Shown: positions 1 to 18,846 of the stretch, one piece after another
How positions within the stretch are numbered: position 1 is the stretch's first letter
Layout: each line of letters starts with the position of its first letter
Assembly (NCBI GenBank): GCA_019638115.1
Contig: JAHBUK010000002.1
Span: forward strand, 627,867-691,866
Length of the DNA: 64,000 nucleotides
Reading direction: 5' to 3'
Source of the DNA: Flavobacteriales bacterium
Lineage (GTDB): Bacteria > Bacteroidota > Bacteroidia > Flavobacteriales_F > PHOS-HE28
Notes under the pieces: model-generated
The model's input: only the letters and a program-made list of their open reading frames with translations
The model's database searches: none
What the model was told of the DNA's origin: nothing
Program-made: the position numbers and the translations under genes

Positions 1-511
1 TGTGGTGGCCGTTGTTGGTCACCCACTCCTCGGTGACCTCGTAGACGTTGTTGTCCTGGGGTGGCGGACCTCCCGGTCCGCCCGAAACACTGCCCGTGCC
101 GGTGCTCTGTGGCGGAGCGGGAGCTCCGCCTACCGAAGGCCCGCCGATCGCCGAATAATCGATGAGCACCAGGTCGCGCTCGCGGTTCTCTTCGTGGTCG
201 AAGAACTTGCCCTGGTTGCGCAGGTGGGCCAGGAACTCGCGGTTGCCGTAGATGTCCGCGTGCAGGTGGCGCAGCTTGCCGGGCAGGGCGCCGGGGGCAT
301 CAGTGTAGCGTGGGTTGAAGCGCCGCACTTGGGCGTGCAGCAGCTCGTCGAAGAAGAGCGAAGCGTTGCGCGCCCGTTCACTGCCCTGTGCAGCGGCATC
401 GAAACCCCGGCGCCGCTCCGCTTCCTCGCGCGGCACCACGGCCCAGCCCAGCTCCTGCGCATAGGCCAGGATGCGCGCTTGTACGGTCTTGTGTTCGCCG
501 GGGGTGGGCAT
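1..511 (-). CDS. hsdR: Type I restriction enzyme R subunit, N-terminal part (cut by window edge)
   Basis: This is the first 170 codons of the restriction (motor/nuclease) subunit of a type I restriction-modification complex; the rest lies beyond position 1. The N-terminal stretch with TVQARILAYAQELGW, then HEENRERDLVLIDY, then NVYEVTEEW matches the usual start of the HsdR N-terminal domain. The nuclease and helicase motifs are not in the window. Its ATG shares one base with the stop of the upstream ATPase gene (TAATG), so translation is probably coupled. Residues about 123-151, where relatives have a short linker, are a Gly/Pro-rich insert made by a palindromic DNA element. The identification comes from family recognition and operon position. 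Confidence 0.85.
   Translation of the reverse strand, partial: MPTPGEHKTVQARILAYAQELGWAVVPREEAERRRGFDAAAQGSERARNASLFFDELLHAQVRRFNPRYTDAPGALPGKLRHLHADIYGNREFLAHLRNQGKFFDHEENRERDLVLIDYSAIGGPSVGGAPAPPQSTGTGSVSGGPGGPPPQDNNVYEVTEEWVTNNGHH
63..136. repeat. In-frame palindromic element inside hsdR
   Basis: Two hairpins with 8-bp perfect arms and 4-base loops: GGCGGACC/GGTCCGCC (63-82, loop TCCC) and GGCGGAGC/GCTCCGCC (111-130, loop GGGA), separated by 28 bases and followed by TACCGA. The second hairpin differs from the first by a paired change that keeps base pairing. The same architecture and the same TACCGA flank occur in hsdM. The insert keeps the hsdR frame open and translates as a Gly/Pro-rich linker. 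Confidence 0.8.
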
Positions 512-3144
512 TAAGCCTTGGCTTTAGCAGCTTTTGCAGCCTTAATCAACTTACGTCGATTCATCGTGGCTTCAACCAATGCCTTCAGCGAAGCAATATC
601 ATTCGCAAGTTCCGCAGGTGTGGGCACCGGCGCCGCTTTAGCCGAGGAAGGATCGTGTGCTGATACTACATCACTGCTACGGGAGTGCAGCTTGTCGATC
701 ATCTCGTATTCACGTTGGTCAAAGCCGACAACTTCTTCGAGAGCATCAACCCGGATCCAATCTCTATAGCGTTTCACTGCCCCATTGAAGACAACATCCT
801 GAATCACACGCTCAAGAGTTGCCCGTAATCCATCGTAAGCGCTCCGCATGTTGCGGATATCCTCTTCTCCAGGATAGGCAGGCCATGCCTTTGCCAGTTT
901 CGTCTGTGTCTTCTCTAGCTTGTCAATGCGCTCTTTGTAGCCTTGATGGTCCCAAGGCAAACCGCTCATTACATTGCCAGGGGTAGAGTTGAGCCATTGC
1001 AAATGGCTGCTGTTGCTTGGGATTCCGGCTGCCTCAATCTCGTCAGACAGTTGACCAAGGAATGAAGTGTCATGCGTGAAAACTATTACTTGCCTCTTCC
1101 TAGCCTCTTCAACTAAGCGCCTTGCGACGTCGCGTCTTTTCCAATGATCCAGAGACGACACGGGGTCGTCAAACACGATACCACAGGTATGGTTGGCCAA
1201 TGACAATTCCGCAAAGAAAGACGCCAGTGCTATCGATCTCTGTTCACCCTCGCTCAGTATCTCATCGAGCTTCTTTGCCGTTGGCATGTCGAGTACAAGT
1301 TGAAGAAGCATCTTTCCCCTATCATTCCTCTCCTTGAGCTTGGTCCTTATGTGTGTCACATTCAACTTGACCAGTTCCGCATCAAGTGCGTCCTTGAGGT
1401 CTTTAGACACAGCGGAACTTGCAAGCTCTTTGGCCTTGCGGGAAATCGCAGTAGTTCCCAGTCCCGACTTTGCATCCTCAAGTAACTTGCGCGTCTTCAT
1501 TCGTTGCAGAAGATCAAGCATAGGCTGAAGGATCTGCGCTAAAGCCTGTCTACTTGCCAACTCATTGCGTTCCGCTTCTAGCATCTTCTTGGCCTCCGGA
1601 TCCGAAGCCTTCATGTATGAGCGCGCAAGAATCAGTTGGCGCGCCGCTAAGGACCGAATAGAAGACCTTGGGCAGGGCGCTAATGCAGGAACATTTAGCC
1701 AGGAATGCGTTTCTAGGGATGCAAGCATCCAATCCCTTCGCTTCACAATGCTCTCTGCCCAATTATCGATACTAATAGCCAAGGCCTCATCATGGGTGGC
1801 AATCTCCGCTCTCAGGGTAGCATCCATGCCAACGGACATACTGGCTGCTTCGATCTTACCCTTCGCAACATTTAATGCGTCAGCTGCCTCCTTCGCCTTC
1901 TTGGAAACATCATCCTTGACGTATTTCTCAAATCGCTTCAACCTGTCTGCGCCATCATTCAGAACTTCTTGGCACAGAGGGCACACGGCTGCATTATCCG
2001 TGTAGGGAAAGTCGTGTCCGTGATATGCCTGCTCCGTAGAGAATTTGCGCGCCGCTTCGAACAGTGCCTTCCAAACAGGCCCGCCTGTGCCAGGTAGTAG
2101 TTCCTCGCCTTTGGTCAATGCATTTGCCGCTGCTGCCTCAAGCTGGGTAGTCAGTACGACTGCATCATCCAATCCTTTCAGCTTTGCAATGCTATTCTCA
2201 TTCACCCATTTCTCGGGTTGTATCACTGCTTCACCGAGTGCTTTGAATCGCTGAACTGCAAGTGATAGCTCTTGCGATTTAGCTGCAGGGTCGACTTGAG
2301 CCAGTGCTGAGTTAAGCTGCGTCAATCGTAGTTTTTCGGCAGCGCTAAGTGTCCCGAGCTTAGTAATTGAGTCCTCAGGCGTCTCATGAGAAAGCCGAGC
2401 GAACAATGCGCCGACTTGTGTCGGGCCATTTAGTTGTTGGAAGGCATCCTTATTTGTGTTTACCGCTGTGATCGCAGCCTCCAGCTTCTGTGATAAGGCA
2501 GGTATTAACCTGTTCGCTAAAGCTTCCATGATCTCTAGACCCATCGGCAGATATGCGACCTCCTGCTCTTCGGTTAGGTAAGCACGCGCGCATTTAGCGT
2601 CAAAGACAGAAATTGCTGAAAGCCTGTCAGGCGATACGGCGTCGCGGCTCCATGTAAGGGAGACATCAGCACCATTCACTTCGATCACGATATTCGCTGT
2701 AGGCACCGCAGTCGCTCTAGCAGGATCGTTGGCATTCGGATGCACTGATTCGGTCTTGTCTCTGCTTCGACATGCACGCTTTAAAACACGGGCATATCCT
2801 GACTTTCCAGATCCATTGCCCCCATAGATGACAGTTATACCCGTTGTAGCAAAGGGCAAGACTTGATTAGCAGGGATACAGTTAACATCGTTGAGGTCCT
2901 TCATCTCCTTGAGAGCGATCACCTCACCAGCCTTAACCTGTACTGGTATATGTGTGGCGTTCAAAGGTTTGGCCATCAAGCCAGCGGGCACCGCAAATCC
3001 ATGGTTGCCAAGGAAGAGTGAATAGATCTCTTGCTCGTCAGTCGCATCCAACGTGCAGTCCTTTTCAAGCAATCGACGAAGGGCATCCCTTTGCCAATCA
3101 GGCAGGGTTTGACTCCAGGTGAGGATGTCATGTATTACTGCCAT
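511..3144 (-). CDS. ABC-type ATPase embedded in the hsd operon, PrrC/RloC-like
   Basis: An 877-residue Rad50/RloC-style ATPase. Walker A GGNGSGKS is at residues 108-115, a hook-like CPLC at 388-391 lies in a long helical region, the ABC signature LSEGEQRS is at 630-637, Walker B ends in FDDPVSSLD (658-666), and the switch histidine is H691 in VFTHD. The C-terminal 140 residues contain R774-x3-E778 followed by H820 and H830, the residue types of the PrrC/RloC anticodon-nuclease triad (Arg-Glu-His). The gene lies between hsdS and hsdR, 24 bases after hsdS and overlapping the hsdR start. It is visibly more AT-rich than hsdM, which suggests separate acquisition. The ATPase call is firm. Anticodon nuclease activity is inference; a DNA-damage or phage-sensing ATPase without that activity is the alternative. 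Confidence 0.75.
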   Translation of the reverse strand: MAVIHDILTWSQTLPDWQRDALRRLLEKDCTLDATDEQEIYSLFLGNHGFAVPAGLMAKPLNATHIPVQVKAGEVIALKEMKDLNDVNCIPANQVLPFATTGITVIYGGNGSGKSGYARVLKRACRSRDKTESVHPNANDPARATAVPTANIVIEVNGADVSLTWSRDAVSPDRLSAISVFDAKCARAYLTEEQEVAYLPMGLEIMEALANRLIPALSQKLEAAITAVNTNKDAFQQLNGPTQVGALFARLSHETPEDSITKLGTLSAAEKLRLTQLNSALAQVDPAAKSQELSLAVQRFKALGEAVIQPEKWVNENSIAKLKGLDDAVVLTTQLEAAAANALTKGEELLPGTGGPVWKALFEAARKFSTEQAYHGHDFPYTDNAAVCPLCQEVLNDGADRLKRFEKYVKDDVSKKAKEAADALNVAKGKIEAASMSVGMDATLRAEIATHDEALAISIDNWAESIVKRRDWMLASLETHSWLNVPALAPCPRSSIRSLAARQLILARSYMKASDPEAKKMLEAERNELASRQALAQILQPMLDLLQRMKTRKLLEDAKSGLGTTAISRKAKELASSAVSKDLKDALDAELVKLNVTHIRTKLKERNDRGKMLLQLVLDMPTAKKLDEILSEGEQRSIALASFFAELSLANHTCGIVFDDPVSSLDHWKRRDVARRLVEEARKRQVIVFTHDTSFLGQLSDEIEAAGIPSNSSHLQWLNSTPGNVMSGLPWDHQGYKERIDKLEKTQTKLAKAWPAYPGEEDIRNMRSAYDGLRATLERVIQDVVFNGAVKRYRDWIRVDALEEVVGFDQREYEMIDKLHSRSSDVVSAHDPSSAKAAPVPTPAELANDIASLKALVEATMNRRKLIKAAKAAKAKA

Positions 3145-3168
3145 ACTTCTTGCGCAGTTAGTAAGGGA

Positions 3169-4449
3169 TTATGATTCACCCACCCTCACCTTCCCCGTCA
3201 TCAGCTCATGAAGCAGGGTGCGGAAGAGGTCTTGGAGTGTTTTGGTCTTACGTTCGGCAACTTGCCGCTTGGTGCGCACTGCATCCAAAGCAAGCACCAT
3301 GTCCTTCTGTTCTTCGATCGAAGGCAGTGCTACTGCGAGCGTCTTGATCCTGCCTAAGGCAAGCTTCGGCTGTGCATTCTTCAACGTCTGTGCTTTGATC
3401 TCGTGCTGACAGCGGTCGCTATCGAGCCAGTACATCAGGTAACGGGGCTCGATGCGCTTCTTGTTACGGATCACGAGCCGGTTGGCATTCTCGGTCAGGT
3501 TGGCACCGTCCAATTCCTCAGGGATCATGCCCACAATGCCAATGCTACCTGCAACGGAGATGTAGACATCGTCCTTCTCAATGATGTACCGCTGGATACG
3601 GGGCTGGATATGAGTGGGCACGAACAACAGCTGCTGCGTTAGCACTGAGTTGTCTTCGAAGTCCGTGACCCGGATGTACGGATAGCCCGTATCCTCTGCC
3701 ACAAGTGCATTCCCCTTGGGCAGTCGCTTACCACTGCGCACATCGGCCAAGTCCTCAAGCTTCACCACCTCCCAACTCTCCGGCACCCTCCCGACCTCCG
3801 TTTCCTTGAGCGCTTCGCCGCGCAGCCCTTCGGTGAAGAGCTTCTGCATCAGGGCCTGCTTCAGCTCGGTGGTGGTGCGGATCAGGCGCTCCTGCTGCGC
3901 GATGGCCTCCTGCACCGTGCTGAGCACCTGGGCGATGCGCTGCTGTTCGGGGAGCGGGGGTAACGCGATCTGCAATTCGGCCAGCTTCGACCGCGACATG
4001 TTCGGGATGGTGGTCTTGTTGCCTCGCCCGATATAGAGGTTGCCCACATTGAAGGCATACCAGAACCAGAAAACCGCATACTGCGGGTCCACCATGCCAT
4101 CGAAGGCGCGCAGCCGGTGCAGGTGGTTCTGGATGTAGCAGCGCTCCACTTCACCCCGCCACATGGCCGTGCGGCCTACATCACCACCTTCACACAGCAA
4201 GAGGTCGCCGGGAAGCAATGTGTAGCGTGCTTCCTCGGCCGTGCTGAAGTGCATCTGATCCAGTTCCGCAAGCTCCAAGCGGTTCCAGAAGACATTCTTG
4301 GTGCGTAAAAAGGGTCGCTGATTATCTCCGATACGGTTGCGCTCGGAGACCTGCTTGCCTTGGATCAGGTCAAAGACAGAATCGACCCGGTCGATGGACC
4401 AGGTTTCCGGGTAGGTCCCGATCTCGGTGATGAGTTCTTCGACTTCCAT
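3169..4449 (-). CDS. hsdS: Type I restriction enzyme specificity subunit S
   Basis: The 426-residue protein sets the DNA target of the type I complex. It has the two-half layout of HsdS: target recognition domain 1 (about 10-165), a conserved helical spacer with the LPPLPEQQRIAQVL motif (about 165-215), target recognition domain 2 (about 225-375), and a second helical spacer starting LPSIEEQKDMVLALD near 380. It follows hsdM by three bases, so the methyltransferase subunits M and S are clearly one transcription unit. The recognition sequence cannot be predicted by eye. No frameshift was seen, so the subunit appears functional. Confidence 0.93.
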   Translation of the reverse strand: MEVEELITEIGTYPETWSIDRVDSVFDLIQGKQVSERNRIGDNQRPFLRTKNVFWNRLELAELDQMHFSTAEEARYTLLPGDLLLCEGGDVGRTAMWRGEVERCYIQNHLHRLRAFDGMVDPQYAVFWFWYAFNVGNLYIGRGNKTTIPNMSRSKLAELQIALPPLPEQQRIAQVLSTVQEAIAQQERLIRTTTELKQALMQKLFTEGLRGEALKETEVGRVPESWEVVKLEDLADVRSGKRLPKGNALVAEDTGYPYIRVTDFEDNSVLTQQLLFVPTHIQPRIQRYIIEKDDVYISVAGSIGIVGMIPEELDGANLTENANRLVIRNKKRIEPRYLMYWLDSDRCQHEIKAQTLKNAQPKLALGRIKTLAVALPSIEEQKDMVLALDAVRTKRQVAERKTKTLQDLFRTLLHELMTGKVRVGES

Positions 4450-4452
4450 GCG

Positions 4453-6426
4453 TCAGAACCCAAGTCCGGTTAGTATCCGCTTCAACTCCTCATCCGTCCG
4501 CTGGACCTCCACCTCAATGGCTTCCAGTTCCTGCACGATCTGCGGGATGGGGCGGTAGCTGGCGGCCTCGCCGGTGTGGATGTAGCGGCTGGGCGAGATG
4601 TTGTAGTCGTTCTTGGCGAGCTCCTCCACCGGTACGATGCGGCTGAGCTTCTCCACCTGCTGCCAGCCGAGCATGACCTCCGCAATGCGGTCGATGTGCG
4701 CGGGGGCGAGGAAGTTCTTGGGCTTGCCCTTCTCGAAGAGCTGGCCGGCGTTCACCAGCAGCACCTGGCCCTGGCGGGCTTTGGGCTTGGCGCGGCGCAG
4801 GAAGAGCACGATGCCCGGCGCGGTGGTGTTGTAGAAGAGGTTGTCAGGCAGGTAGAGCACGCTTTCCACCAGGTCGTTCTCCACGAACCAGCGGCGCACC
4901 TCGCGCTCCTTGCTGTTGCCATCGTTGCCGCTGCCGCGGCTGGCGGCGCCGGTATCGAGCACCACGGCGGCGCGGCCGGTGGGCTTGAGGCTGGCCAGGA
5001 TGTGCTGCGCCCAGCCCCAGTCCGCACTGGCCTTGCCGGGGAAGCCCGCGCCGGTGGGGAAGCGGTCCAGCTCGTCGTTGGCATAGTCCGCCTCGGTGAA
5101 CCAGTCCTGGTTCCACATGGGGTTGGCCACCACACGGTCGAAGGCCTTCAGCCGCCCGCGTTCGCGGAACTTGGGGTTCTTGAAGGTGTCGCCGATCTCG
5201 ATCTGGCCCTGCATGTCATGGATGATCATGTTCATGTTGGCCATGGCCCAGGTCTCGGGGACGTACTCCTGGCCATAAAGGCGCAGGGGAGCATAGGCGG
5301 GCGGACCTCCCGGTCCGCCACTATGCACGGGCGGACCGGGAGGTCCGCCTACCGACATGCGCCGTTCCATTTCGCTCTCGCACTTCACCAGCAGGCCGCC
5401 GCTGCCGCAGCAGGGGTCGTAGATCTCCATGCCGGGTTCGCACTCCAGCACGCGGGCCATGATGGTGCCCACCTCGCCGGGGGTGTAGAACTCGCCAGCG
5501 CTCTGCCCGCCGCCCTCGGCGAACTTGCGGATGAGGTACTCGTAGCTCTTGCCGATGATGTCGGCCTCCACATCGTTGAGGCCAAGGCGCTTGGTGCTGA
5601 TGGCCTCGATGAGGTTGCTGAGGCGGTCGTCCGCCAGGTCGCGCTGGCCGTGGGTGGTGGCGTTGAAGTCCACCCGGTCGATGATGCCCTGCAGCAGGGG
5701 GTTGGCCTTGGCGATGTCGCGCAGGTGGGTGGTGAGCTGCTCGCCGATCCGGTCGCTGAGGGTGCGCACCACGCTCCACACGGGCTGCTCGGGGTCGGCA
5801 GGCTGCAGGGGCAGGTAGAAGCGCACGAGCTTCTTATCGGCCTTCACGAGCTTGAAGGCCTTTTCGCGGCTGCCCACCTCGGCGGCGATGCGGTCCAGCT
5901 CATCATCGAACACGTCGCACAGGCGCTTGGTGAAGATGAGCGGGAGGATGTAGTCCTTGTACTTGGGGGCGTCCTTGGCGCCGCGGATGGAGCAGGCGGC
6001 ATCCCAGATCCAGGTTTCGAGGCTCTTGTCGGCCTGGGGCTTGGAGGCTTTGGGGCCTGAGGCTTTTCGGCCTTTAGGCTTGTCGGCCTCTAGGCCATTG
6101 CCCTGTGGCTTATCGGCCTTTGGCGGTCGGCCTGGGCCGCGCTTTGCCGTGGGGTAGGGAACCGGCGACGGCTGGGTCGCTGGCAGGCCATTGGCTTGTA
6201 GGCCTATGGGCTCAGCGACCACTTGGCCTCCGGCCACCAAGGAAATGCTCCCCCCACGCCCCCGGCCTTGGGCCACTTGGCCGCTGGCCACCAAGGCTTG
6301 CTTCACCTCATCATAGGTGACTTCATCCCAACCCAGGAGTTGGCGGGCCTTACCATTGCCAAGACTTCCGTGCTGCTCCAGCAGGGCCACCAGAGCCTCG
6401 GCCTGCTGTTCCATCGTCGCGTTCAT
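4453..6426 (-). CDS. hsdM: Type I restriction enzyme DNA methyltransferase subunit M
   Basis: N6-adenine methyltransferase subunit. Numbering here is from an upstream TTG at 6435; the ATG at 6426 (residue 4) is taken as the start. The HsdM core begins near LETWIWDAACSIRGAKD (139 on). The AdoMet motif DPCCGSGG is at 340-347 and the catalytic motif is NPMW (438-441) rather than the more usual NPPF/Y. Residues 1-137 are an unusual extension: a small helical/winged-helix-like part followed by a Lys/Pro/Gly-rich linker with an AT-hook-like KRGPGRPPK (98-106), whose DNA is built from GGCC-rich repeats. Residues about 361-383 are a Gly/Pro insert from a palindromic element. It is the first gene of the operon hsdM-hsdS-ATPase-hsdR. 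Confidence 0.93.
   Translation of the reverse strand: MNATMEQQAEALVALLEQHGSLGNGKARQLLGWDEVTYDEVKQALVASGQVAQGRGRGGSISLVAGGQVVAEPIGLQANGLPATQPSPVPYPTAKRGPGRPPKADKPQGNGLEADKPKGRKASGPKASKPQADKSLETWIWDAACSIRGAKDAPKYKDYILPLIFTKRLCDVFDDELDRIAAEVGSREKAFKLVKADKKLVRFYLPLQPADPEQPVWSVVRTLSDRIGEQLTTHLRDIAKANPLLQGIIDRVDFNATTHGQRDLADDRLSNLIEAISTKRLGLNDVEADIIGKSYEYLIRKFAEGGGQSAGEFYTPGEVGTIMARVLECEPGMEIYDPCCGSGGLLVKCESEMERRMSVGGPPGPPVHSGGPGGPPAYAPLRLYGQEYVPETWAMANMNMIIHDMQGQIEIGDTFKNPKFRERGRLKAFDRVVANPMWNQDWFTEADYANDELDRFPTGAGFPGKASADWGWAQHILASLKPTGRAAVVLDTGAASRGSGNDGNSKEREVRRWFVENDLVESVLYLPDNLFYNTTAPGIVLFLRRAKPKARQGQVLLVNAGQLFEKGKPKNFLAPAHIDRIAEVMLGWQQVEKLSRIVPVEELAKNDYNISPSRYIHTGEAASYRPIPQIVQELEAIEVEVQRTDEELKRILTGLGF
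5300..5355. repeat. In-frame palindromic element inside hsdM
   Basis: Two perfect hairpins, GGCGGACC/GGTCCGCC with loop TCCC (5300-5319) and the same arms with loop GGGA (5330-5349), separated by 10 bases and followed by TACCGA (5350-5355). The pair together forms a longer inverted repeat. It matches the hsdR element in arm sequence, loop sequence, order and right flank, with a shorter spacer. In the minus-strand frame it is read as Gly/Pro-rich residues just after the AdoMet motif region. Confidence 0.85.
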
Positions 6427-7171
6427 GTGGCTCAAGATAGGGGCTGCGTGCCGGGCGCAAAATATCCAGAGGCGCTTTCTTGGCTCTGGGTGTTTTGCAC
6501 GGGTAGGAGGGGGGAGTTTTCAACGATCGGGCTTGGTGGTGGGTGGGAGAGGCAAGACATAAGGCCTCAAGAGTCAAGTAAAAGTAGCAAGGGCAAGTGC
6601 CCAAAGGCCGGCAGGCCTGCGCGCAATGTTGAGCGGAGAGGGGGGCTGCTTGGTGCGTGCGGCTGCGCTGCAGATGGGGGCGGAGTGCGCCCTTATGTAA
6701 TATGTATAGGCTGCGCGGGCTCCCGCGGCGAGCGTAAGGCGGCTTCGTGCACGGGGCACGAGCGTTGCGGTGGGCGCTTTGGGGGCGCTCCCCTGCAAAT
6801 TGCTGAAAGCCATGCAGTCACCTGGTACCCCACAGGCAGTCATCAGGTACCCTACAGGTGATCACCACCGACCTCACAGGTGATCACCACCGACCCCACA
6901 GGTGATCACCACCGACCTCACAGGTGATCACCACCGACCCCACAGGTGATCACCACCGACCCCACAGGTGATCACTACCGACCCCACAGGTGATCACCAC
7001 CGACCTCACCGATGATCACCCGGTACCGTGCATCCGGCGGCTGATCCGGGGTCAGGATGTCGGGTGGCAAGCCCAGGCCCGGTAAGCCAAGGGCCAATGT
7101 TTGCTGCAGCAGGCCCCAAGCAGCGTTAACAGCTCCGTAAGCGTCATCTTCGTGTACCAACCCTTCACACC
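6427..7171. other. Intergenic region upstream of the restriction operon
   Basis: About 745 bases without a convincing gene. It must hold the hsdM promoter, but no clear TAnnTTTG element was found on the minus strand. It contains the 22-bp tandem array (6812-7020), a GC-rich inverted repeat GGGCGC/GGCGCTCCC near 6769-6790, and a short AT-rich patch near 6694-6709. An 80-codon minus-strand frame at 6975-7217 ends inside the array and is not convincing. Confidence 0.6.
6812..7020. repeat. 22-bp tandem array with GGTGATCACC palindromes
   Basis: Seven near-identical 22-bp units start at 6856, 6878, 6900, 6922, 6944, 6966 and 6988; each opens with AGGTGATCACC followed by ACCGACC(C/T)CAC. The core GGTGATCACC is a perfect 10-bp palindrome; the sixth unit has one change (CACTACC). 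Two degenerate units precede (6812 and 6834) that carry GGTACC instead, and a degenerate one follows at 7010 with GGTACC close behind. The period is near two turns of the helix, so the palindromes face the same side. Confidence 0.9.
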
Positions 7172-8032
7172 ATGGAACGAGGACTACGGATGGCAGGCCT
7201 GCTGGGGCTGCTGGCAAGCGGGATCGCCAATGCGCAATTCCCTTTGGTGAACACTTCGCCCAACACCATCCATACGCTCCACTCGCTTGGGTCCGGCACG
7301 CGCTACATCGATAATTTCAACAGTAGCGCCCAGCAACGCACCATCTACAACCTGGACCTTTCGGTGCACCGTGTGTTGAACATTCCGGCTCCGCCTTCCG
7401 GGATGCAATGGGGAAGCATGTCCTACATAACGGAGGCCTTGTTCGACACCGACCCCAGCACGATCGAGTTCGTGATGTCGGCCTACACCCCCGGTGGGCC
7501 GAGCAGCTTTGCGGTGTACATCTACCGGGAGGATGGCACGCTGGTCTTCGTGCAGAACCCCGGGAGCTTCGTTAGCGGTGGGGGTGGAGGTGTGATCGGC
7601 ATCAACGCGTTCAGCCCCATTTATGCCGTGGATGGCCAGGCCTACATGCTGCTCTTTACCAACAACGTTTTCGGGCCACCCACCCGCATCTACGCGCTGC
7701 CCGGCATGCTGCCCTGCACGGACTGCATGGGGAATTTGTCCCCATCCGGCATAGGCACCGGAGCCGATGAGGGCTTCGGCGCGCCCAACGGCATCCACAT
7801 CTTCCCCAACCCGGCCAATGAGGTGCTCACTGTCACCCTCGGATCCCAGCAACAAGCCGCGGTGCTCTTGCGGCTGTACGACGGCCTCGGCCGCCTGGCG
7901 CTCGAACGGCACGTTGCTGCTGCCGATCGGGTGGACCTTGAAGTGGGTAGCCTCGCCGCAGGCACGTACGTGTGCCAGGTGTTCGTAGCCGGCGAGTTGC
8001 GCGCTTCCCTGCCGGTGGTGCTGGAGCGATAA
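7172..8032 (+). CDS. Secreted protein with T9SS C-terminal sorting domain
   Basis: A 286-residue protein with a signal peptide (hydrophobic AGLLGLLASGIANA then Q) and a C-terminal type IX secretion domain starting near IHIFPNPANEVLTV and ending in a beta-rich stretch with LYDGLGR and AGTYVCQV. The central 170 residues (YNLDLSVHRVLNIPAPP..., EALFDTDPSTIEFVMSA...) look like a beta-sandwich but are not recognised. It should be exported by Sec and then by the T9SS to the surface or medium. It is alone on the plus strand between the restriction operon and a glycosyltransferase. A start at the second Met (7190) is also possible. Function unknown. Confidence 0.8.
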   Translation: MERGLRMAGLLGLLASGIANAQFPLVNTSPNTIHTLHSLGSGTRYIDNFNSSAQQRTIYNLDLSVHRVLNIPAPPSGMQWGSMSYITEALFDTDPSTIEFVMSAYTPGGPSSFAVYIYREDGTLVFVQNPGSFVSGGGGGVIGINAFSPIYAVDGQAYMLLFTNNVFGPPTRIYALPGMLPCTDCMGNLSPSGIGTGADEGFGAPNGIHIFPNPANEVLTVTLGSQQQAAVLLRLYDGLGRLALERHVAAADRVDLEVGSLAAGTYVCQVFVAGELRASLPVVLER

Positions 8033-8175
8033 GGAACCAGGCCTGTATGGGGTAGGGGTGTTCATACTGTGCGCTGGTAATAGAAGGAGTACCCGGTTGC
8101 GTGCCTCTGTTCCGGCCTGAAGAAGGGACCAATACCTGCCGGTACCCGAACGGTGCCCATCTTCGCACTCGCTCC

Positions 8176-9075
8176 ATGAAGGTCAGCCTCATCACCGTTT
8201 GCCGCAACGTGGCCCCCGTGATCCGGGAAACGCTGGACAGCATCCTGTCGCAGACGCACCCGGAGATCGAGCTGATCGTGATCGACGGCGCCAGCACCGA
8301 TGGCACGGTGGAGATCCTGCGGGAGTATGTGAAAGCTCCGCAGGTTATCCCAACGCAGGAGGCCCCCCTGCGGGCAAAGGGTGCCGCAGGGTCCGTTGCA
8401 GGAGGTCCGATGCCTATCGGACCTGCGGGGGGAGCGGACCCGGCCAATGTCTTGGACCCTTCCCGAGCGGAGTCGAGGGGAGGGCGCGGCATCGACATCC
8501 TCGTGAGCGAGCCCGACAAAGGCATCTACGACGCCATGAACAAGGGCCTGGCGCGCGCCACGGGCGAGGTGATCGGCTTCGTGAACGCGGGCGACCTGCT
8601 GATGACGCCCCAGAGCATCGCACAGGTGGTGGCGGCCTTCCAGCGCAGCCATGCCGATGCGGTCTATGGCGACATCATCATGGTGGACGAGAAGGACATC
8701 TACCGGGTGCACCGCACCTGGCTGAGCGGCACCTATCACCGCGCGAATTTCCGCAAGGGCTGGATGCCTCCGCACGTGGGCACCTTCATCCGCAAGAGCG
8801 TGTACGACCGCTTCGGCCATTTCAACACCACCCTGCGGATCGGGGCGGACTATGAGATCCTGCTGCGCTTCCTCTACAAGCACCAGGTGCCCACGGTACA
8901 CCTGCGCGAGGTGCTGGTGCGCTTCCGACTTGGCGGCATGAGCAACGGCAGCATCAAACACATCCTGAAGGCCAACCGCGAGGTGCGCGCCTCCTGGGGC
9001 ATCAACGGCCTGCAGGCCCCGCCGCTGCTGGTAACGCGCAAGCTGTGGAGCAAGGTGATGCAGTTCTTCCACTGA
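8176..9075 (+). CDS. Family 2 glycosyltransferase (WcaA-like) with a large in-frame insert
   Basis: A 299-residue GT-A glycosyltransferase, probably adding sugars to a surface polysaccharide. The nucleotide-sugar fold begins MKVSLITVCRN and has IDGASTDGT (36-44); the region SEPDKGIYDAMNKG (from 111) is typical of WcaA-like enzymes, with NAGD as the metal-binding segment. The ATG at 8176 is chosen because the domain starts there. Between EYVKAP and IDILVSEPDKG, where relatives have only a few residues, there are about 50 extra residues (54-105) rich in Gly/Pro/Ala, encoded by a hairpin-rich stretch. Whether activity survives is unknown, but the insert falls in a loop and the frame stays open. 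It ends 16 bases from the convergent parB. Confidence 0.85.
   Translation: MKVSLITVCRNVAPVIRETLDSILSQTHPEIELIVIDGASTDGTVEILREYVKAPQVIPTQEAPLRAKGAAGSVAGGPMPIGPAGGADPANVLDPSRAESRGGRGIDILVSEPDKGIYDAMNKGLARATGEVIGFVNAGDLLMTPQSIAQVVAAFQRSHADAVYGDIIMVDEKDIYRVHRTWLSGTYHRANFRKGWMPPHVGTFIRKSVYDRFGHFNTTLRIGADYEILLRFLYKHQVPTVHLREVLVRFRLGGMSNGSIKHILKANREVRASWGINGLQAPPLLVTRKLWSKVMQFFH
8335..8492. repeat. Hairpin-rich in-frame insertion in the glycosyltransferase gene
   Basis: The stretch contains CCCTGCGG (8366-8373) pairing with CCGCAGGG (8384-8391), and AGGTCCGAT (8403-8411) pairing with ATCGGACCT (8416-8424) across the 4-base loop GCCT. It then holds CGAGCGGAGTCGAG between C-rich and G-rich arms (about 8458-8483). 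The second hairpin has the same arm and loop size as the hairpins in hsdM and hsdR, though a different sequence. Limits are approximate and taken from where the protein departs from the family. Confidence 0.65.
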
Positions 9076-9091
9076 GACCGGCCGGGGCGGT

Positions 9092-9970
9092 CTACCCCAG
9101 CACGGCCAGGATGCGCTCCAACTCCTCGGCGTTCTTGAAGCCGATCTCGATCCGGCCCTTGCCTTCGGTGGTGCGCTTCACGGTGACCTTGCCGCCGATG
9201 CGCTCGGCCAGTCGCTTGGAGAGTTCCTTGTCCGGCCGTGCCACCGACTTGCTGCCGCTGGCAGTGGCGCGCGGGCCCACGCTGCGGGCGAGGTCCTCCA
9301 CCTGGCGCACGCTGAGCTGGCTTTCCACGATGCGGTGGTAGAGTTCCAGCTGCTTGGCGGGGTCGGCAATGGCGATGAGCGCACGGGCGTGGCCCATGCC
9401 GATGCTGCGCTGGCGCAGGCCGATCTGCACTTCCGGCGGCAGCTTCAGCAGGCGCAGGTAGTTGGTAACGGTGCTGCGGTCCTTGCCCACCTTCTCGCTG
9501 AGCTGCTCCTGGGTGAGCTTCACCTCATCGATGAGGCGCTGGAAGCTGATGGCCACCTCGATGGCATCGAGCTCCTCGCGCTGGATGTTCTCCACCAGCG
9601 CCATTTCCAGCATGGCCTCGTCGTTGGCGATGCGCACGTAGGCGGGCACTTCCGTGAGGCCGGCCAGCTGCGAGGCACGGAAACGCCGCTCGCCGCTGAT
9701 GAGCTGGTAGCGGTCGATGCCCACCTTGCGCACGGTGACGGGCTGGATGATGCCCAGCTCGCTGATGCTCTGGGCCAGTTCCGCCAGGGCCTCGTCGCTG
9801 AAGTGCGTGCGTGGCTGGAAGGGGTTCGGCTCGATGTGCGCGATGGCCAGCAGGTTGATGTTGCCGCTGGGGCGCGCGGGCGCGGAGGCCATGTCGGAGC
9901 GCACGATGGTATCGCTTCCGGGCTCGTCCAACAGGGCGCTCAATCCGCGGCCTAATCCTTTCTTCTTCAT
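9092..9970 (-). CDS. parB: Chromosome partition protein ParB
   Basis: A 292-residue ParB/Spo0J protein that binds parS sites and loads onto the origin region. It starts KKKGLGRGLSALL, typical of chromosomal ParB, then has the CTPase/ParB core (IEPNPFQPR, ISGERRFRASQLAG) at about 45-130, a helix-turn-helix region (QEQLSEKVGKDRSTVTNYLRLLKLP) at about 150-180, and a C-terminal dimerisation tail ending ELERILAVLG. It overlaps parA by four bases (ATGA). No parS-like TGTTTCACGTGAAACA was found in this window. Confidence 0.95.
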   Translation of the reverse strand: MKKKGLGRGLSALLDEPGSDTIVRSDMASAPARPSGNINLLAIAHIEPNPFQPRTHFSDEALAELAQSISELGIIQPVTVRKVGIDRYQLISGERRFRASQLAGLTEVPAYVRIANDEAMLEMALVENIQREELDAIEVAISFQRLIDEVKLTQEQLSEKVGKDRSTVTNYLRLLKLPPEVQIGLRQRSIGMGHARALIAIADPAKQLELYHRIVESQLSVRQVEDLARSVGPRATASGSKSVARPDKELSKRLAERIGGKVTVKRTTEGKGRIEIGFKNAEELERILAVLG

Positions 9971-10782
9971 GGGTTCTCTTCAATGGCAATGGTGCGCTCG
10001 CTGTCCGGGATGCGGGTGAGGCTGTTCTTCTGCAGGATCTCGCGGGCCAGGTTCAGGTAGTTCACGGCGCCTTTGCTGCTGGCATCGTGCATGATGATGG
10101 TCTGCCCGTGGCTGGGTGCTTCGCCCAGGGCCACGTTGCGGTGGATGACGGTATCGAACACCAGTTGCTGGAAGTGGGTCTTCACCTCTTCCACCACCTG
10201 GTTGGCCAGGCGCAGGCGGCTGTCGTACATGGTGAGCAGCATGCCTTCGATCATCAACTCGGGGTTGAGGCGCTGTTGCACGATCTTGATGGTGTTGAGC
10301 AGTTTGCCCAGGCCCTCCAGGGCGAAGTACTCGCACTGCACGGGCACGATCACGCTGTCGGCACAGGTGAGGCTGTTCACCGTTACCAGGCCCAGGGAGG
10401 GGGAGCAGTCGATGATGATGAAGTCGTACTGATCGCGCAGGGGCTCCAGCACACGCTTCATCTGGTATTCCCGCTCGGGCATGTCGATCATCTCGATCTC
10501 GGCACCCACCAGATCGATGTGGCCCGGCAGCAGGTCCATGTTGGGGTTGTCCGTGCTAACGATGACCTCGCTGGCCGGGGTGTTGTTGATGATGCACTCG
10601 TAGATGCTGGCCTTCACCTCGCGGGGATCGTGGCCGGTGCCGCTGGTGGCGTTGGCCTGGGGGTCGGCATCCACCAGCAGGGTGCGGCGCTCCAGCACGC
10701 CCAGGCTGGCGGCCAGGTTGATGGCGGAGGTGGTCTTGCCCACGCCGCCTTTCTGGTTCACGATGGAAATGATCTTGGCCAT
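9967..10782 (-). CDS. parA: Chromosome partition ATPase ParA (Soj)
   Basis: A 271-residue ParA/Soj ATPase that works with ParB in chromosome segregation. The deviant Walker A KGGVGKTT (residues 11-18), DADPQANAT, and IDCSPSLGLVT are all present; there is no N-terminal DNA-binding extension, as expected for the chromosomal type. It is the first gene of the parA-parB pair. The upstream 89 bases before the next gene show no clear promoter element. Confidence 0.96.
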   Translation of the reverse strand: MAKIISIVNQKGGVGKTTSAINLAASLGVLERRTLLVDADPQANATSGTGHDPREVKASIYECIINNTPASEVIVSTDNPNMDLLPGHIDLVGAEIEMIDMPEREYQMKRVLEPLRDQYDFIIIDCSPSLGLVTVNSLTCADSVIVPVQCEYFALEGLGKLLNTIKIVQQRLNPELMIEGMLLTMYDSRLRLANQVVEEVKTHFQQLVFDTVIHRNVALGEAPSHGQTIIMHDASSKGAVNYLNLAREILQKNSLTRIPDSERTIAIEENP

Positions 10783-10871
10783 GGTCGGGCTTCTTTGGGG
10801 ATAGGGTTGGGGCGCGTGCTTCGATATCGCTTCGACTTCGCTAAGCGTGATGCGTCCTTACGGTAGTTCGT

Positions 10872-11549
10872 TCAGATGGTGATGCGCTCGCCGATGGCGG
10901 GCAGGAGCAGGGTTAGACCGGCCTTGGCGAAAGTGGCCTTGGCCTGTTCGGTATCGATGGTGATGGGCGGGAAGGTGTTGTAGTGCATGCCCACCACGGT
11001 CTTCACGCCCATGAGTTGTGCGGCTTCCACCGCATCGTCCACGCCCATGGTGAAGTGGTCGCCGATGGGCAGGCAGGCGAATTTCAGGGCATGGCGCTTC
11101 AGCAGTTGCATGTCCATGGTCAGGGCGGTATCGCCGGCATGGTGGAAAGCCCCTTCGGGCCCGCTCACCACGAAACCGCCGGGATTGCCGCCGTAGCTGC
11201 CATCGGGCAGTTCGCTGCTGTGTATGGCGTTCACGTACTTGATGCGCAGCTGGCCCACGGTGGTGGCACCGCCGATATTCATGCCCACACCCTTGTCGAT
11301 GCCCTTCTTGCCGTACCAGGTAACGATCTCGTAGTTGCTGAAAAGCGTGGCACCGGTGCGCTTCAGGATGGCTTCTGCATCCAGCACGTGGTCGCCGTGG
11401 CCGTGGGTGAGCAGCACCAGGTCCGCTTCAACAGTGGCGGGATCGATGTGCTTGGCCAAGGTATTGCCGCTGATGAAGGGGTCGATGAGGATCTTGCTGC
11501 CGCTGGTCTCCACCAGCATGCAACTGTGACCGAGGTAGGTGAGGTGCAT
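10872..11549 (-). CDS. UPF0173-type metal-dependent hydrolase
   Basis: A 225-residue metallo-beta-lactamase-fold hydrolase of the UPF0173 family, whose natural substrate is not established. The metal motif THGHGDHVLD is at about 48-57, HHAGDTALTMDM and a C-terminal GMHYNTFPPI complete the site. The ATG at 11549 gives MHLTYLGHSC, the usual family start and length; an upstream in-frame ATG (11582) would add 11 residues. It precedes parA on the same strand by 89 bases, so co-transcription is possible. Confidence 0.88.
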   Translation of the reverse strand: MHLTYLGHSCMLVETSGSKILIDPFISGNTLAKHIDPATVEADLVLLTHGHGDHVLDAEAILKRTGATLFSNYEIVTWYGKKGIDKGVGMNIGGATTVGQLRIKYVNAIHSSELPDGSYGGNPGGFVVSGPEGAFHHAGDTALTMDMQLLKRHALKFACLPIGDHFTMGVDDAVEAAQLMGVKTVVGMHYNTFPPITIDTEQAKATFAKAGLTLLLPAIGERITI

Positions 11550-11713
11550 GGTTCCGGGTGCATCACCGAAGCGTTGGGTCAACGACTACGGTGCGTTCAC
11601 AAAGTACCGGCGAAGGAGTTGCTCCGCGGTGTTGATAAGATCCAGAGTTTTGAACAAAGCGCAGCTACTTACCCGCAATTGGGGGAAGCTACGGTGGAGA
11701 ATGGAAGGCTTCC

Positions 11714-12061
11714 TCAGATGTCCTTGCGGTCCAGGTCCTCGAAATTCACATCCGTGAAGGAGGAGGGACCGTTGTCAAGCTCCTGTGCGCCTTTTGCAGC
11801 ATCGTTGCCACCGCTACCACGCAGCCGATCGATCTCGCCGATGGCATCGTGCAGGCCATCGAGGAACTTGTCGAAATCCTCCTTGTACAGGAAGACCTTG
11901 TGCTTGTCGTAATGCGCCGTGCCGTCGGCGTTCGTGTGCTTCTTGCTTTCCGTGATGGTGAGGTAGAGATCACCCGCCCGGGTGCTCTTCACATCAAAGA
12001 AATAGGTCCGCTTTCCGGCCCTTACGGCCTTGGAATAGACATCCTCGCGATCGTCCGTCAT
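11714..12061 (-). CDS. DUF3276 family protein (PUR-type nucleic-acid binding)
   Basis: A 115-residue member of DUF3276, a Bacteroidota/spirochaete family with a PUR-alpha-like fold expected to bind single-stranded DNA or RNA. Visible family features are the start DDREDVYSKAVRAGKRTYFFDVK, DLYLTITESKK and HKVFLYKEDFDKFLDGLHDAI. The acidic tail (SFTDVNFEDLDRKD) is also typical. The ATG at 12061 is chosen because homology starts there; 12100 is an alternative. A TATATTTG promoter lies 36 bases upstream. Confidence 0.85.
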   Translation of the reverse strand: MTDDREDVYSKAVRAGKRTYFFDVKSTRAGDLYLTITESKKHTNADGTAHYDKHKVFLYKEDFDKFLDGLHDAIGEIDRLRGSGGNDAAKGAQELDNGPSSFTDVNFEDLDRKDI

Positions 12062-12097
12062 GCGGCTTTGGACCCGCTTGGTATGGGTCCAGCGTTC

Positions 12098-12127
12098 CAA
12101 ATATAGACGCTAACCGCAAAGGTGCAA
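12098..12127 (-). promoter_or_regulatory. Bacteroidota-type promoter for the DUF3276 gene
   Basis: On the minus strand, TTG (12127-12125) is followed after 19 bases by TATATTTG (12105-12098), matching the Bacteroidota consensus TTG-N19-TAnnTTTG. The predicted start lies about 30 bases before the ATG. Confidence 0.65.
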
Positions 12128-12165
12128 GTCCCGCCCGCGCTTCGGGCCTGGCGAACAGGGGGTGC

Positions 12166-14055
12166 TCAACTGCGCAATTCGTCGCGTGCCTCCTCCAGCA
12201 ACTGCTCGGCATGCATGGCCGCATACAGTCCATTGAGGCTCAGCAACCGGGCATGATCACCCTGCTCGGCGATGCGCCCACCTTCCAGCACCAGGATGTG
12301 GTCCGCATCGCGTACGGTGCTCACACGGTGGCTGATCAGCACCGTGGTACGCCCGGCCATCACGGACTTCAACTCGCGCAGTATGGCTTCCTCCGTGGCG
12401 GTATCCACCGCGCTCAAGGCATCGTCGAATACCAGTATGCGCGGCCTGCGCACAATGGCCCGGGCGATGCTTACGCGCTGTTTCTGCCCACCGCTCAGCG
12501 TTACGCCGCGCTCTCCCAACAGGGTCTCGTAGCGCTGCGGGAAATCCATGATGTTCTCGTGTACCTGGGCCGCGCGGGCGGCATCGCGCACGCGTTCATC
12601 CAGGTCGTCGGAAGGGTCCAGGCTGAAAGCGATGTTGTTGCGGATGCTGTCGCTGAAGAGGAAGACATCCTGCGGCACCACCCCGAGGCGGCTCCGCAGC
12701 ACATCAAGGCGGATGCGGCGGATGGGCACCCCATCGATGCGCACTTCGCCAGCGGATACATCGTGCAGGCGGCCGATCAGGTCCACCAAGGTGCTCTTGC
12801 CGGAGCCGGTGTGGCCCACGATGGCCAGGGTGCTGCCCGCCGGCACGTGGAAGGAAACGTCGCTGAGCGCCTGGATGCCGGTATCGGGATAGGTGAAGGA
12901 GACCCGGTCGAAGGTGATGGCGCCCTGCACATCGCGCAGCTCATCACCCTCGGCCACCACGTTGGGCTTGCTGTCCAGGAACTCGTTGATGCGCTGCATG
13001 CTCACGGAGGCCTGCTGGATGAGTGAGGTGACCCAGCCCACCGAGGCGAAGGGCCAGGTGAGCATGTTCACGTAGATCACGAACTCGGCGATCACCCCCA
13101 CGGTAACGGTGGGGTCGCCCTGGATGAGCTTGAGGGTGCCGATGAAGATGGTGAGCACGGTGCTCAGTCCGATGAGCAGCATGATGGCCGGCATGAAGAG
13201 GGCATCCACACGCGCTTGGTCCAGCCGCCTTTCGCGGTAGGCAGTGGTGGCCGCATCGAAACGCTCGATCGCCATACCCTCCTTGGCATAGGACTTCAGC
13301 ACGCGGATGCCGCTGAAGGCCTCCTGGGCCATGGTGCTGAGCTGGCTCTGCTGCTCCTGCACGGCCATGCTGCGCCGGTTGATGACCTCGCTCACGTAGT
13401 AGATGGCCACGCTCATGATGGGCAGCGGGGCCAGGGTCCAGAGGGTCAGCTCCAGGTTCTTGTTGAGCATGAAGCCGATGCAGAGCACGAAGAGCACCAC
13501 CAGGTTGATGGTGTACATCACGGCGGGGCCGAGGTACATGCGCACCTTGCCCACGTCCTCGCTGATGCGGTTCATCATGTCGCCCGTGCTGTTGCGCTTG
13601 TAGAAGGCCCGGTCCAGCTCCTGGTAGTGCGCATAGATCCGGTTCTTCATGTCGTACTCGATCAGGCGGCTCACCACGATGATGGTCTGGCGCATGAGGA
13701 ACATGAAGAAACCCTTCAGCAGGGCGAATGCCAGGAAGAGCAACGCCAGGATGCCGGCTGCCCAGGCTACGGTGGTGCGCACCGCGCCCTCGCTGCCAAG
13801 GTCGTTCATGCGCGCCTGCAGGTCGATGCCGGTCCAGCTCACCCATTGGGTGATGAGCGGGGGCACGTCCAGGTGGCGTTCCTGCACGGGGACTTCCGCT
13901 TGGGCCAGGCCTTTCTTGATGAGGTCGATGGCCGCACTGACCACCTGCGGCGAATAGACGGCGAACAGGTTGCTGAGCACGATGAACACGATGCCCAGCA
14001 GCAGGTGCCAGCGGTACTTGGCGAAATAGGGATTGAGCTTGAGGAGCGGTCGCAT
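12166..14055 (-). CDS. MsbA-type ABC exporter (fused permease and ATPase)
   Basis: A 629-residue half-transporter that should work as a homodimer in the inner membrane, exporting a lipid or hydrophobic compound; the substrate is unknown. The membrane part (about 1-340) has six likely helices, beginning with WHLLLGIVFIVLSNLFAVY. The ATPase part has Walker A GHTGSGKST, a Q-loop VVPQDVFLFSD, the signature LSGGQKQR and Walker B ILVFDDALSAVD followed by the switch ISHR. A loop of about 50 residues (58-105) after the first helix is longer than usual. It is divergent from leucine dehydrogenase; both have a promoter in the gap. Confidence 0.93.
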   Translation of the reverse strand: MRPLLKLNPYFAKYRWHLLLGIVFIVLSNLFAVYSPQVVSAAIDLIKKGLAQAEVPVQERHLDVPPLITQWVSWTGIDLQARMNDLGSEGAVRTTVAWAAGILALLFLAFALLKGFFMFLMRQTIIVVSRLIEYDMKNRIYAHYQELDRAFYKRNSTGDMMNRISEDVGKVRMYLGPAVMYTINLVVLFVLCIGFMLNKNLELTLWTLAPLPIMSVAIYYVSEVINRRSMAVQEQQSQLSTMAQEAFSGIRVLKSYAKEGMAIERFDAATTAYRERRLDQARVDALFMPAIMLLIGLSTVLTIFIGTLKLIQGDPTVTVGVIAEFVIYVNMLTWPFASVGWVTSLIQQASVSMQRINEFLDSKPNVVAEGDELRDVQGAITFDRVSFTYPDTGIQALSDVSFHVPAGSTLAIVGHTGSGKSTLVDLIGRLHDVSAGEVRIDGVPIRRIRLDVLRSRLGVVPQDVFLFSDSIRNNIAFSLDPSDDLDERVRDAARAAQVHENIMDFPQRYETLLGERGVTLSGGQKQRVSIARAIVRRPRILVFDDALSAVDTATEEAILRELKSVMAGRTTVLISHRVSTVRDADHILVLEGGRIAEQGDHARLLSLNGLYAAMHAEQLLEEARDELRS

Positions 14056-14074
14056 GCGGGGGAGGGGAACTTCC

Positions 14075-14082
14075 TACTTTTG
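14075..14082 (+). promoter_or_regulatory. TAnnTTTG -7 element upstream of leucine dehydrogenase
   Basis: TACTTTTG on the plus strand matches the Bacteroidota -7 consensus. No clear -33 TTG was found. It would give a leader of about 130 bases before the gene at 14215. Confidence 0.45.
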
Positions 14083-14124
14083 CCCCCGCCTGCCAGAGGT
14101 AGCGACCCCTAAGTGGAAGCGCAG

Positions 14125-14132
14125 CAAAGGTA
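14125..14132 (-). promoter_or_regulatory. TAnnTTTG -7 element upstream of the ABC exporter
   Basis: TACCTTTG on the minus strand, 69 bases before the exporter ATG, matches the -7 consensus. The -33 part is weak. Together with the plus-strand element at 14075 it gives face-to-face promoters in one intergenic gap. Confidence 0.5.
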
Positions 14133-14214
14133 GGTGCGGGGGAGAGGTGGACAGGAACCCGTTACCACGCCCCCCGTATCGCACAAGCCTCCACCACTGC
14201 AATCAAGGACCCCA

Positions 14215-15312: not shown

Positions 15313-15321
15313 GCCCTCCAT

Positions 15322-16272: not shown

Positions 16273-16286
16273 ACCGAAGGGATGCC

Positions 16287-16802
16287 ATGAGAACACTTCG
16301 CCCCATGATCCGCATGTCCAAAGGAACAATGGCCGTGCTGCTGCTGCCATTGACCATGACCTTTGGATGCCGGCTGACCGACCATACCGAATCAGCGGAG
16401 AACATCGGCCCTGAAGCCATCGGACACTCCGCTTCCGGGTATGAACGAGTGGATAGCGACGACCGCCCGGCGATCGCATTCGCTGAGTTGGAACACAACT
16501 ACGGCAAAGTGGTGCAGGGCACCAAAGTGGAGCACACCTTCACCTTCCGCAATTCAGGAGGAAGCCCCTTGGTGCTGAGCGATGTGCGCGGCTCTTGCGG
16601 CTGCACCGTAGGCAAGGACTGGCCGCGCCATCCGATAAAACCCGGTGAGAAAGCCAGCATTCTGGTGGCTTTCGACACCAATGGCCGCAGTGGCCTGGAG
16701 CACAAGACCGTTACCGTGGTGGCCAATACCACACCGCCCACCACGGTGCTTTCCCTGCGTGGCGAGGTGATCGGCCCCGCCAACGTGGCCCCCATTGAAT
16801 GA
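16287..16802 (+). CDS. DUF1573 lipoprotein
   Basis: A 171-residue protein with one DUF1573 domain (an immunoglobulin-like fold of unknown role). After a short basic N-terminus there is a hydrophobic segment ending LTMTFGC, a plausible lipobox with Cys 28. The family motifs HNYGKVVQGTKVEHTFTF, GSCGCTVGKDWP and VAFDTNGRSG follow. In Bacteroidota it commonly lies between nusB and yajC, as here. It is probably a periplasm-facing lipoprotein. Confidence 0.88.
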   Translation: MRTLRPMIRMSKGTMAVLLLPLTMTFGCRLTDHTESAENIGPEAIGHSASGYERVDSDDRPAIAFAELEHNYGKVVQGTKVEHTFTFRNSGGSPLVLSDVRGSCGCTVGKDWPRHPIKPGEKASILVAFDTNGRSGLEHKTVTVVANTTPPTTVLSLRGEVIGPANVAPIE

Positions 16803-16824
16803 CCTTAGACCGAACAACAGAACA

Positions 16825-17148: not shown

Positions 17149-17160
17149 CCACATCCGTTC

Positions 17161-18032: not shown

Positions 18033-18072
18033 CGGCCCTTCAAGCATAAGAGGCATACCGGGGGATGGTGGC

Positions 18073-18633: not shown

Positions 18634-18846
18634 GGCGGCGTCATACGTCAGGCCTTCCTTCGGGGTTCCCGGAAAAATGCGGGGGGCGATCGCCTGGATG
18701 CGGTACGCGTTCATGGGGCGAAAGATGGCAACAAGGATCGACATCGCGAAGCATCGCAACGGATGCGACGAACGATCACTGAACTACGGACCGCCCCATG
18801 GTCTTTCGGCACATTCATTCCATCTTAGCGCCATCGACCTGAATAC

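What the first reader, a model, noticed from the sequence alone, without database searches (positions are those of the whole stretch)
6812..7020. 22-bp array of GGTGATCACC palindromes upstream of the restriction operon
Seven near-perfect units and three degenerate ones, spaced at about two helical turns, each with a 10-bp perfect palindrome. Outer units replace the core by GGTACC. Arrays of evenly phased palindromes usually bind a dimeric protein. The place, upstream of hsdM, suggests control of the restriction operon or an iteron-like site. The homogeneity of the inner units suggests recent expansion.
Basis: partly seen in the sequence, partly recalled or inferred. Interest (0 to 1): 0.6.

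Follow-up and report, generated by a model that had tools for sequence, protein, structure and literature searches.

The report
Repeat array beside a restriction operon
A stretch of ten 22-letter DNA repeats beside a bacterial anti-virus (restriction) operon is probably a protein-docking array, and it resembles a widespread class of regulator-plus-array cassettes in the same bacterial genus.

Summary
The array is real: ten head-to-tail 22-bp units at 6813-7032 (seven near-identical inner, three degenerate outer). GGTGATCACC occurs 117 times in the genome, but that is a codon effect. The 22-bp unit was found as an array only here.

Unrelated arrays of 21 or 22 bp recur in this genus. In 27 of 30 loci of an FN3-like gene family an array lies upstream, against 0 of 30 parB loci. 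Where a regulator gene precedes the array, LuxR types go with 21 bp (11 of 11) and XRE types with 22 bp (8 of 9, one 43). Arrays also stand upstream of 15 of 20 modification genes that carry a genus-specific winged-helix-like N-terminal domain. The window's HsdM has that domain; its array has no FN3, XRE or LuxR neighbour.

Best reading: an operator array, probably controlling hsd, bound by HsdM's own domain or by an XRE protein in trans. Binding is inferred, not shown.

The parts
6813..7032 (.). Array of ten 22-bp units
6857..7010 (.). Seven near-identical inner units (0-2 mismatches), six with exact GGTGATCACC
6813..6856 (.). Two degenerate left units with GGTACC in the spacer (6824-6829, 6846-6851)
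7011..7032 (.). Degenerate right unit, core GATGATCACC, GGTACC in the spacer (7022-7027)
6235..6414 (-). HsdM N-terminal domain, winged-helix-like, genus-specific; candidate array binder
4453..6435 (-). hsdM (TTG at 6435 or ATG at 6414)
   Evidence: Pfam N6_Mtase and HsdM_N; PADLOC MTase_I
3169..4449 (-). hsdS
   Evidence: Pfam Methylase_S
511..3144 (-). AAA-type ATPase gene inside the hsd operon, PADLOC candidate PDC-S06
7172..8032 (+). Divergent secreted-protein gene with Por_Secre_tail (type IX sorting) domain, starts 140 bp from the array
6436..6812 (.). Intergenic stretch between hsdM and the array; no sigma-70-type promoter or terminator pattern found

Best explanation
The array is a protein-binding operator array in the divergent intergenic region between the hsd operon and a secreted-protein gene. 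It is a 22-bp-period member of a genus-wide class of locus-specific 21/22-bp arrays that normally lie between a DNA-binding regulator gene and an FN3-like gene, or next to R-M modification genes with a winged-helix-like N-terminal domain. Here it most likely controls the hsd operon: copies of a DNA-binding protein dock about every two helical turns on the GATC-centred dyads. The likeliest binder is the N-terminal domain of HsdM itself (negative autoregulation, as in M.SsoII); the next is an XRE-type protein acting in trans. Shown: the array, the class, the regulator/period pairing, the HsdM domain. Inferred: binding, the binder's identity, the effect on transcription.
For: (1) Exact periods survive complete turnover of the unit sequence: of the 27 arrays at 30 FN3 loci, 17 have periods that are multiples of 21, 9 multiples of 22, one is 43; they follow two FN3 clades with 100/100 support. 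(2) A regulator gene stands before the array in 20 of those 27: LuxR type 11 of 11 with 21k, XRE type 8 of 9 with 22k; Fisher 3.4e-5 for 11/0 against 1/9, one further XRE locus (L311) added and the 43-bp array counted against. (3) The genus-specific domain (10 of 395 class genomes, all in this genus) sits at the N-terminus of several HsdM kinds, a Type ISP enzyme and another DNA methylase, with arrays upstream of 15 of 20 informative places. (4) Single-sequence model H-H-H-E-E-E, pLDDT 70; best fold matches are mostly winged-helix proteins. (5) Array block and domain region are shared by G013 and G023 (95% and 84% DNA identity) although the HsdM bodies differ. (6) Dyad symmetry is above shuffles in XRE arrays (p 0.009) and in the group that holds the wHTH-only arrays (p 0.015; two of its rows are orthologues).
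Against: No binding or expression data. wHTH-only arrays have both 21- and 22-bp periods, and where FN3 is present the period follows the FN3 clade, so HsdM's domain does not set the period. Five of 20 such genes have no array upstream. At the window locus no FN3, XRE or LuxR gene, remnant or FN3 leader was found, so the array could be a relic. The own array's dyad score alone is not significant (p 0.17). LuxR HTH similarity does not predict unit similarity overall (Spearman 0.05, p 0.73). Regulator type and period follow two clades and may reflect one ancient split. No promoter was recognised near the array.
Confidence: 0.5

Rival explanations
1. Orphan relic: the array was the operator array of an XRE-array-FN3 cassette whose XRE and FN3 genes were lost; it now persists without function beside hsdM.
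For: Period 22 is that of the XRE lineage. FN3 genes flank 11 of the 15 arrays upstream of wHTH-bearing genes. No cassette gene remains in the window. G023 has nearly the same unit at an R-M-side array and at a LuxR-FN3 cassette.
Against: Inner units are intact and in register. No remnant of FN3, XRE, LuxR or the FN3 leader next to the array. Arrays without an FN3 neighbour recur beside wHTH-HsdM (G013, G023).
Confidence: 0.25
2. Neutral minisatellite: a private intergenic tandem repeat that expanded by slippage or unequal crossing-over and has no function.
For: Unit found as an array only here. Homogeneous centre with degenerate ends, as expansion gives. Other tandem arrays of various periods exist in the genome.
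Against: Periods of 21 or 22 recur at non-random places (27 of 30 FN3 loci, 0 of 30 parB loci) and stay exact while sequences turn over.
Confidence: 0.15
3. Methylation-target array: the units are target sites of the neighbouring R-M system, which senses its own methylation there.
For: HsdS subunits differ between orthologous loci (33-47% identity) and so do the arrays.
Against: G013 and G023 share the array unit although their HsdM bodies belong to different kinds. Most arrays stand beside FN3 genes with a LuxR or XRE gene.
Confidence: 0.04
4. RNA-level element: transcribed repeats fold into hairpins that control readthrough or translation.
For: The strand folds better than shuffles, z -4.75, as any set of palindromic tandem repeats would.
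Against: No Rfam match. LuxR-type arrays show no dyads above shuffles.
Confidence: 0.03
5. Iteron or replication/partition site.
For: 22-bp repeats; parAB lie 2-4 kb away.
Against: Chromosomal, no Rep gene seen, no parS-like site in the window, none in 30 parB loci, no plasmid match.
Confidence: 0.02

Closest known systems
RptR repressor of type I R-M islands (PMC12255303; abstract and passages read)
   Same: Direct repeats, each with a short palindrome (TAGCTA), in the promoter of a type I R-M island, bound by a dimeric repressor.
   Different: Three 9-bp repeats overlapping the promoter and a separate small regulator gene, against ten 22-bp units about 400 bp upstream of hsdM here. A search for an RptR gene was not made.
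Methyltransferase autoregulation, M.SsoII type (PMC3978073; abstract and passages read)
   Same: An N-terminal DNA-binding region of the modification enzyme binds a regulatory site in its own promoter and represses it.
   Different: M.SsoII is a C5 methyltransferase whose N-terminal part was modelled on the phage 434 repressor; here a type I HsdM with a winged-helix-like domain and a ten-unit array, binding untested.
Iterons of plasmid replication origins (recalled, not from a call)
   Same: Tandem repeats of about 18-22 bp with a locus-specific partner protein.
   Different: Chromosomal, no Rep gene seen, no plasmid match.
Intergenic TAACTGA heptamer repeats (PMC4679880; abstract read)
   Same: Many intergenic direct-repeat sets, some in Bacteroidetes, with a proposed regulatory role.
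   Different: One fixed 7-bp sequence close to start codons; here 21/22-bp units whose sequence differs from locus to locus.

Membership tests
Regulator - 21/22-bp array - FN3 cassette (class defined here) | tandem array with a period of 21 or 22 or a multiple | tested here: met
   period 22, ten units
Regulator - 21/22-bp array - FN3 cassette (class defined here) | FN3-like gene downstream of the array | tested here: not met
   no FN3 match in the window nor in L106
Regulator - 21/22-bp array - FN3 cassette (class defined here) | LuxR- or XRE-type regulator gene beside the array | tested here: not met
   none in the window
Array beside a wHTH-bearing modification gene (as in G010, G013, G017, G058, G062) | modification gene with the A1 domain, array upstream | tested here: met
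RptR-type R-M operator | 9-bp repeats with the palindrome TAGCTA | tested here: not met
   units are 22 bp and hold no TAGCTA
RptR-type R-M operator | RptR gene in the operon | not tested
   no search for RptR was made
Self-regulating methyltransferase (M.SsoII-like) | DNA-binding domain at the N-terminus of the modification enzyme | tested here: inconclusive
   winged-helix-like single-sequence model, pLDDT 70, no fold match at E <= 0.001
Self-regulating methyltransferase (M.SsoII-like) | that domain binds and represses its own promoter | not testable with these tools
   needs binding and reporter assays
Plasmid iteron | replication initiator gene beside the repeats | tested here: inconclusive
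   no Rep among the neighbours given to Pfam; no plasmid match of the array

The most novel reading that the evidence does not exclude
The genus carries a family of self-contained gene-control cassettes (LuxR regulator with a 21-bp array, or XRE regulator with a 22-bp array, then an FN3-like gene). Each copy has evolved its own operator sequence while keeping the exact spacing, giving a natural set of mutually insulated regulator/operator pairs. R-M systems have tapped into these arrays by fusing a winged-helix domain to their modification subunits; the window's hsd operon is such a case, in which only the array and the fused domain remain.
Probability: 0.3. Interest if true: 0.85.

Novelty: new variant of a known kind. 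Interest (0 to 1): 0.62.

Why it matters
Long operator arrays that keep an exact 21- or 22-bp spacing while their sequence turns over between loci would be a clean natural system for how regulators and their sites co-evolve and stay insulated from each other. They would also tie R-M control in this genus to a modular DNA-binding domain found on type I, Type ISP and another DNA-methylase enzyme. The pairing rule (LuxR with 21, XRE with 22) can be tested directly with purified proteins and reporters.

Tried and rejected
Genome-wide element: GGTGATCACC occurs 117 times in the own genome and 39-138 times in each of 34 genus relatives, which looked like a global motif. In a 400-kb sample 14 of 15 copies lie in open frames, and the 15 copies in 464 kb outside the array match the Markov expectation of 15.6. 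A codon shuffle gave fewer (3.1 against 14), so codon order matters, but no regulatory role is needed. Rejected.

parS: no match to TGTTTCACGTGAAACA (consensus recalled) within 3 mismatches in the window despite parAB at 9092-10782. Synteny: the glycosyltransferase, parB and secreted-protein genes do not keep this neighbourhood in the relatives looked at, so they gave no empty-site comparison. tRNA and Rfam scans found nothing (for 1-20000, for the whole window). One FN3 protein was not found in plasmids or phages, nor the FN3 profile in viral contigs.

Dropped or unread rows: L307 (weak domain match, E 0.001) was left out of the 22 places; two places with under 1.5 kb upstream (G027, G059:C140) were left out of the 20. 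The 13 stretches were not examined one by one; each holds a single pair of cores. FN3 loci were one per genome (30 of the 145 matches tallied). LuxR genes downstream of FN3 in L350 and L354 were not counted as regulators before the array; a weak XRE match at L324 (E 5.7e-5) beside a 21-type array does not fit the pairing and was not counted. My first impression that every array has a dyad was wrong for the LuxR group (p 0.89).

Full report
THE OBSERVATION. The window lies in a 4.06-Mb genome (G000, contig C2:627867-691866). Ten 22-bp units run head to tail without indels from 6813 to 7032. Units at 6857-7010 have 0-2 mismatches to GGTGATCACCACCGACCCCACA; units at 6813, 6835 and 7011 have 8. 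Six of ten carry the exact palindrome. The three outer units carry GGTACC in the spacer register, where the inner ones have CCGACC. The signal is far beyond chance (lag-22 match 0.93 against a shuffle maximum of 0.45). The array lies between hsdM on the minus strand (ATG at 6414, about 400 bp away) and a divergent secreted-protein gene (7172, 140 bp away).

IS THE PALINDROME A GENOME-WIDE ELEMENT? It occurs 117 times, but 14 of 15 sampled copies are in open frames, mostly in one reading phase, and the number matches a Markov expectation. Two cores 5-25 bp apart occur only here among the own genome and 57 relatives, apart from one pair with another spacing in G018. A blastn search of the array found no comparable array in the relatives; the best other hit has E 1.1e-5 (G023, 39 bases). 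The exact spaced pattern is found in 13 stretches of a collection of 84,980 species, each with a single pair, not examined further. It is absent from viral contigs, and blastn of the array found nothing in plasmids or phages.

RELATIVES. Four relatives have the same hsdM at 80-93% identity. G013 has an unrelated 21-bp array (15.3 copies) about 400 bp upstream. G007 and G003 have unrelated 21-bp arrays 3.0 and 1.3 kb upstream, beyond a LuxR-type gene. G002's contig ends at hsdM. Among 30 hsdM-like loci of the genus, 9 have an array of about 21 or 22 bp or a multiple in the flank, against 0 of 30 parB loci; 30 glycosyltransferase and 30 secreted-protein loci show only the own array. In 1.6 Mb sampled outside the window, three arrays with a period of 21, 22 or 43 appeared.

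THE HSDM DOMAIN. The first 60 residues of HsdM (6235-6414) form a domain of their own: 22 places in 18 of 45 genus genomes, and none outside the genus in 395 class genomes. It is fused to several HsdM kinds, a Type ISP enzyme and another DNA methylase, or stands in short frames. A single-sequence model gives three helices and a beta sheet of three strands (pLDDT 70). Fold matches are mostly winged-helix proteins, but none is significant, and sequence profiles match solved structures only weakly. Of 20 places with at least 1.5 kb upstream, 10 have an array within 1.5 kb and 5 more within 5 kb. In G013 and G023 the array block (95% identical DNA) and the domain region (84%) are shared while the HsdM bodies differ.

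THE FN3 CASSETTE. In 11 of those 15 loci a gene of one FN3-like family stands on the other side of the array. This family gives 145 matches, fragments included, in 32 of 45 genus genomes. Of 30 loci taken one per genome, 27 have an array upstream, most ending 200-300 bp before the gene, with a conserved-looking leader in between (by eye). On the far side of the array, in the same orientation, 11 of the 27 have a LuxR-type gene and 9 an XRE-type gene (families confirmed by Pfam for single examples). All 11 LuxR arrays have periods that are multiples of 21; 8 of 9 XRE arrays are multiples of 22 and one is 43. The FN3 tree splits into an XRE clade (10 rows) and a LuxR clade (20 rows), 100/100; further loci fit (L311, L320 and, weakly, L324). 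The pairing is therefore inherited in two lineages. What is striking is that the spacing stays exact while the unit sequences become unrecognisable. One natural swap fits recognition by the HTH (L329, L332, L333), but the overall correlation between HTH and unit similarity is nil (0.05, p 0.73). Dyad symmetry exceeds shuffles for XRE arrays (p 0.009) and for the remaining group with the wHTH-only arrays (p 0.015), not for LuxR arrays (p 0.89).

WHERE THE WINDOW ARRAY FITS. It has the 22-bp period of the XRE lineage and the wHTH-HsdM neighbour, but no FN3, XRE or LuxR gene in the 64 kb and no remnant or FN3 leader nearby. Two readings remain close: a working hsd operator array bound by HsdM's own domain or by an XRE protein in trans, or an orphan relic of a cassette. 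I favour the first at 0.5 because of the domain association and the intact inner units; this is inference without binding data.

LITERATURE. The closest precedent is RptR, which represses a type I R-M island through three 9-bp direct repeats with a 6-bp palindrome (PMC12255303, abstract and passages). M.SsoII shows that a modification enzyme's N-terminal region can repress its own promoter (PMC3978073, passages). Two searches for FN3-like genes with tandem or direct repeats and LuxR or XRE regulators found no paper. Related searches listed nothing that describes these arrays, judged from titles and abstract starts only.

Noticed in passing
L106:8544-12377 (hsdR; its 5' part is in window 1-514): HsdR carries an in-frame IS200-like / REP-associated transposase domain (Y1_Tnp, residues 385-462, E 8e-9; REP_Tyr_transpos below its cut-off) flanked by GGPPGPP / GGPGGPP stretches; the frame stays open, and G013 and G002 match over the full length.
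   Followed up: partly
window 5277-5349 and about 60-85: Short palindromic inserts (GGCGGACC...GGTCCGCC) read in frame inside hsdM and hsdR as Gly/Pro-rich stretches; the one in hsdM is absent from G007 hsdM. They look like REP-type inserts tolerated in proteins.
   Followed up: partly
window 8332-8482: The glycosyltransferase gene has an in-frame insert of about 48 aa that many genus orthologues lack (two separate matches).
   Followed up: no
L106:7739-7963: A looser 42-bp array (66% match) with GACCAG...CTGGTC dyads just downstream of hsdR, so the hsd operon has arrays on both sides.
   Followed up: no
L233:17210-18794 (G010): A 21-bp array (27.6 copies) between a different ~290-aa gene without a Pfam match and an N6_Mtase gene; a second gene family may use such arrays.
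   Followed up: partly
window hsdM, linker after the N-terminal domain (about 6100-6150): Lys/Pro/Ala-rich linker with KRGPGRPPK, which resembles an AT-hook (motif recalled, not from a call); seen in several wHTH-HsdM proteins.
   Followed up: no
L312:4105-4677 and L340:883-1183 (both G023): The same genome carries nearly the same 21-bp unit at an R-M-side array and at a LuxR-FN3 cassette, so one regulator might act on both.
   Followed up: partly
L249:18195-18559 (G025): A 43-bp array with GGATCGATCC cores and, by eye, no FN3 or regulator gene next to it: an exception to the pattern.
   Followed up: no
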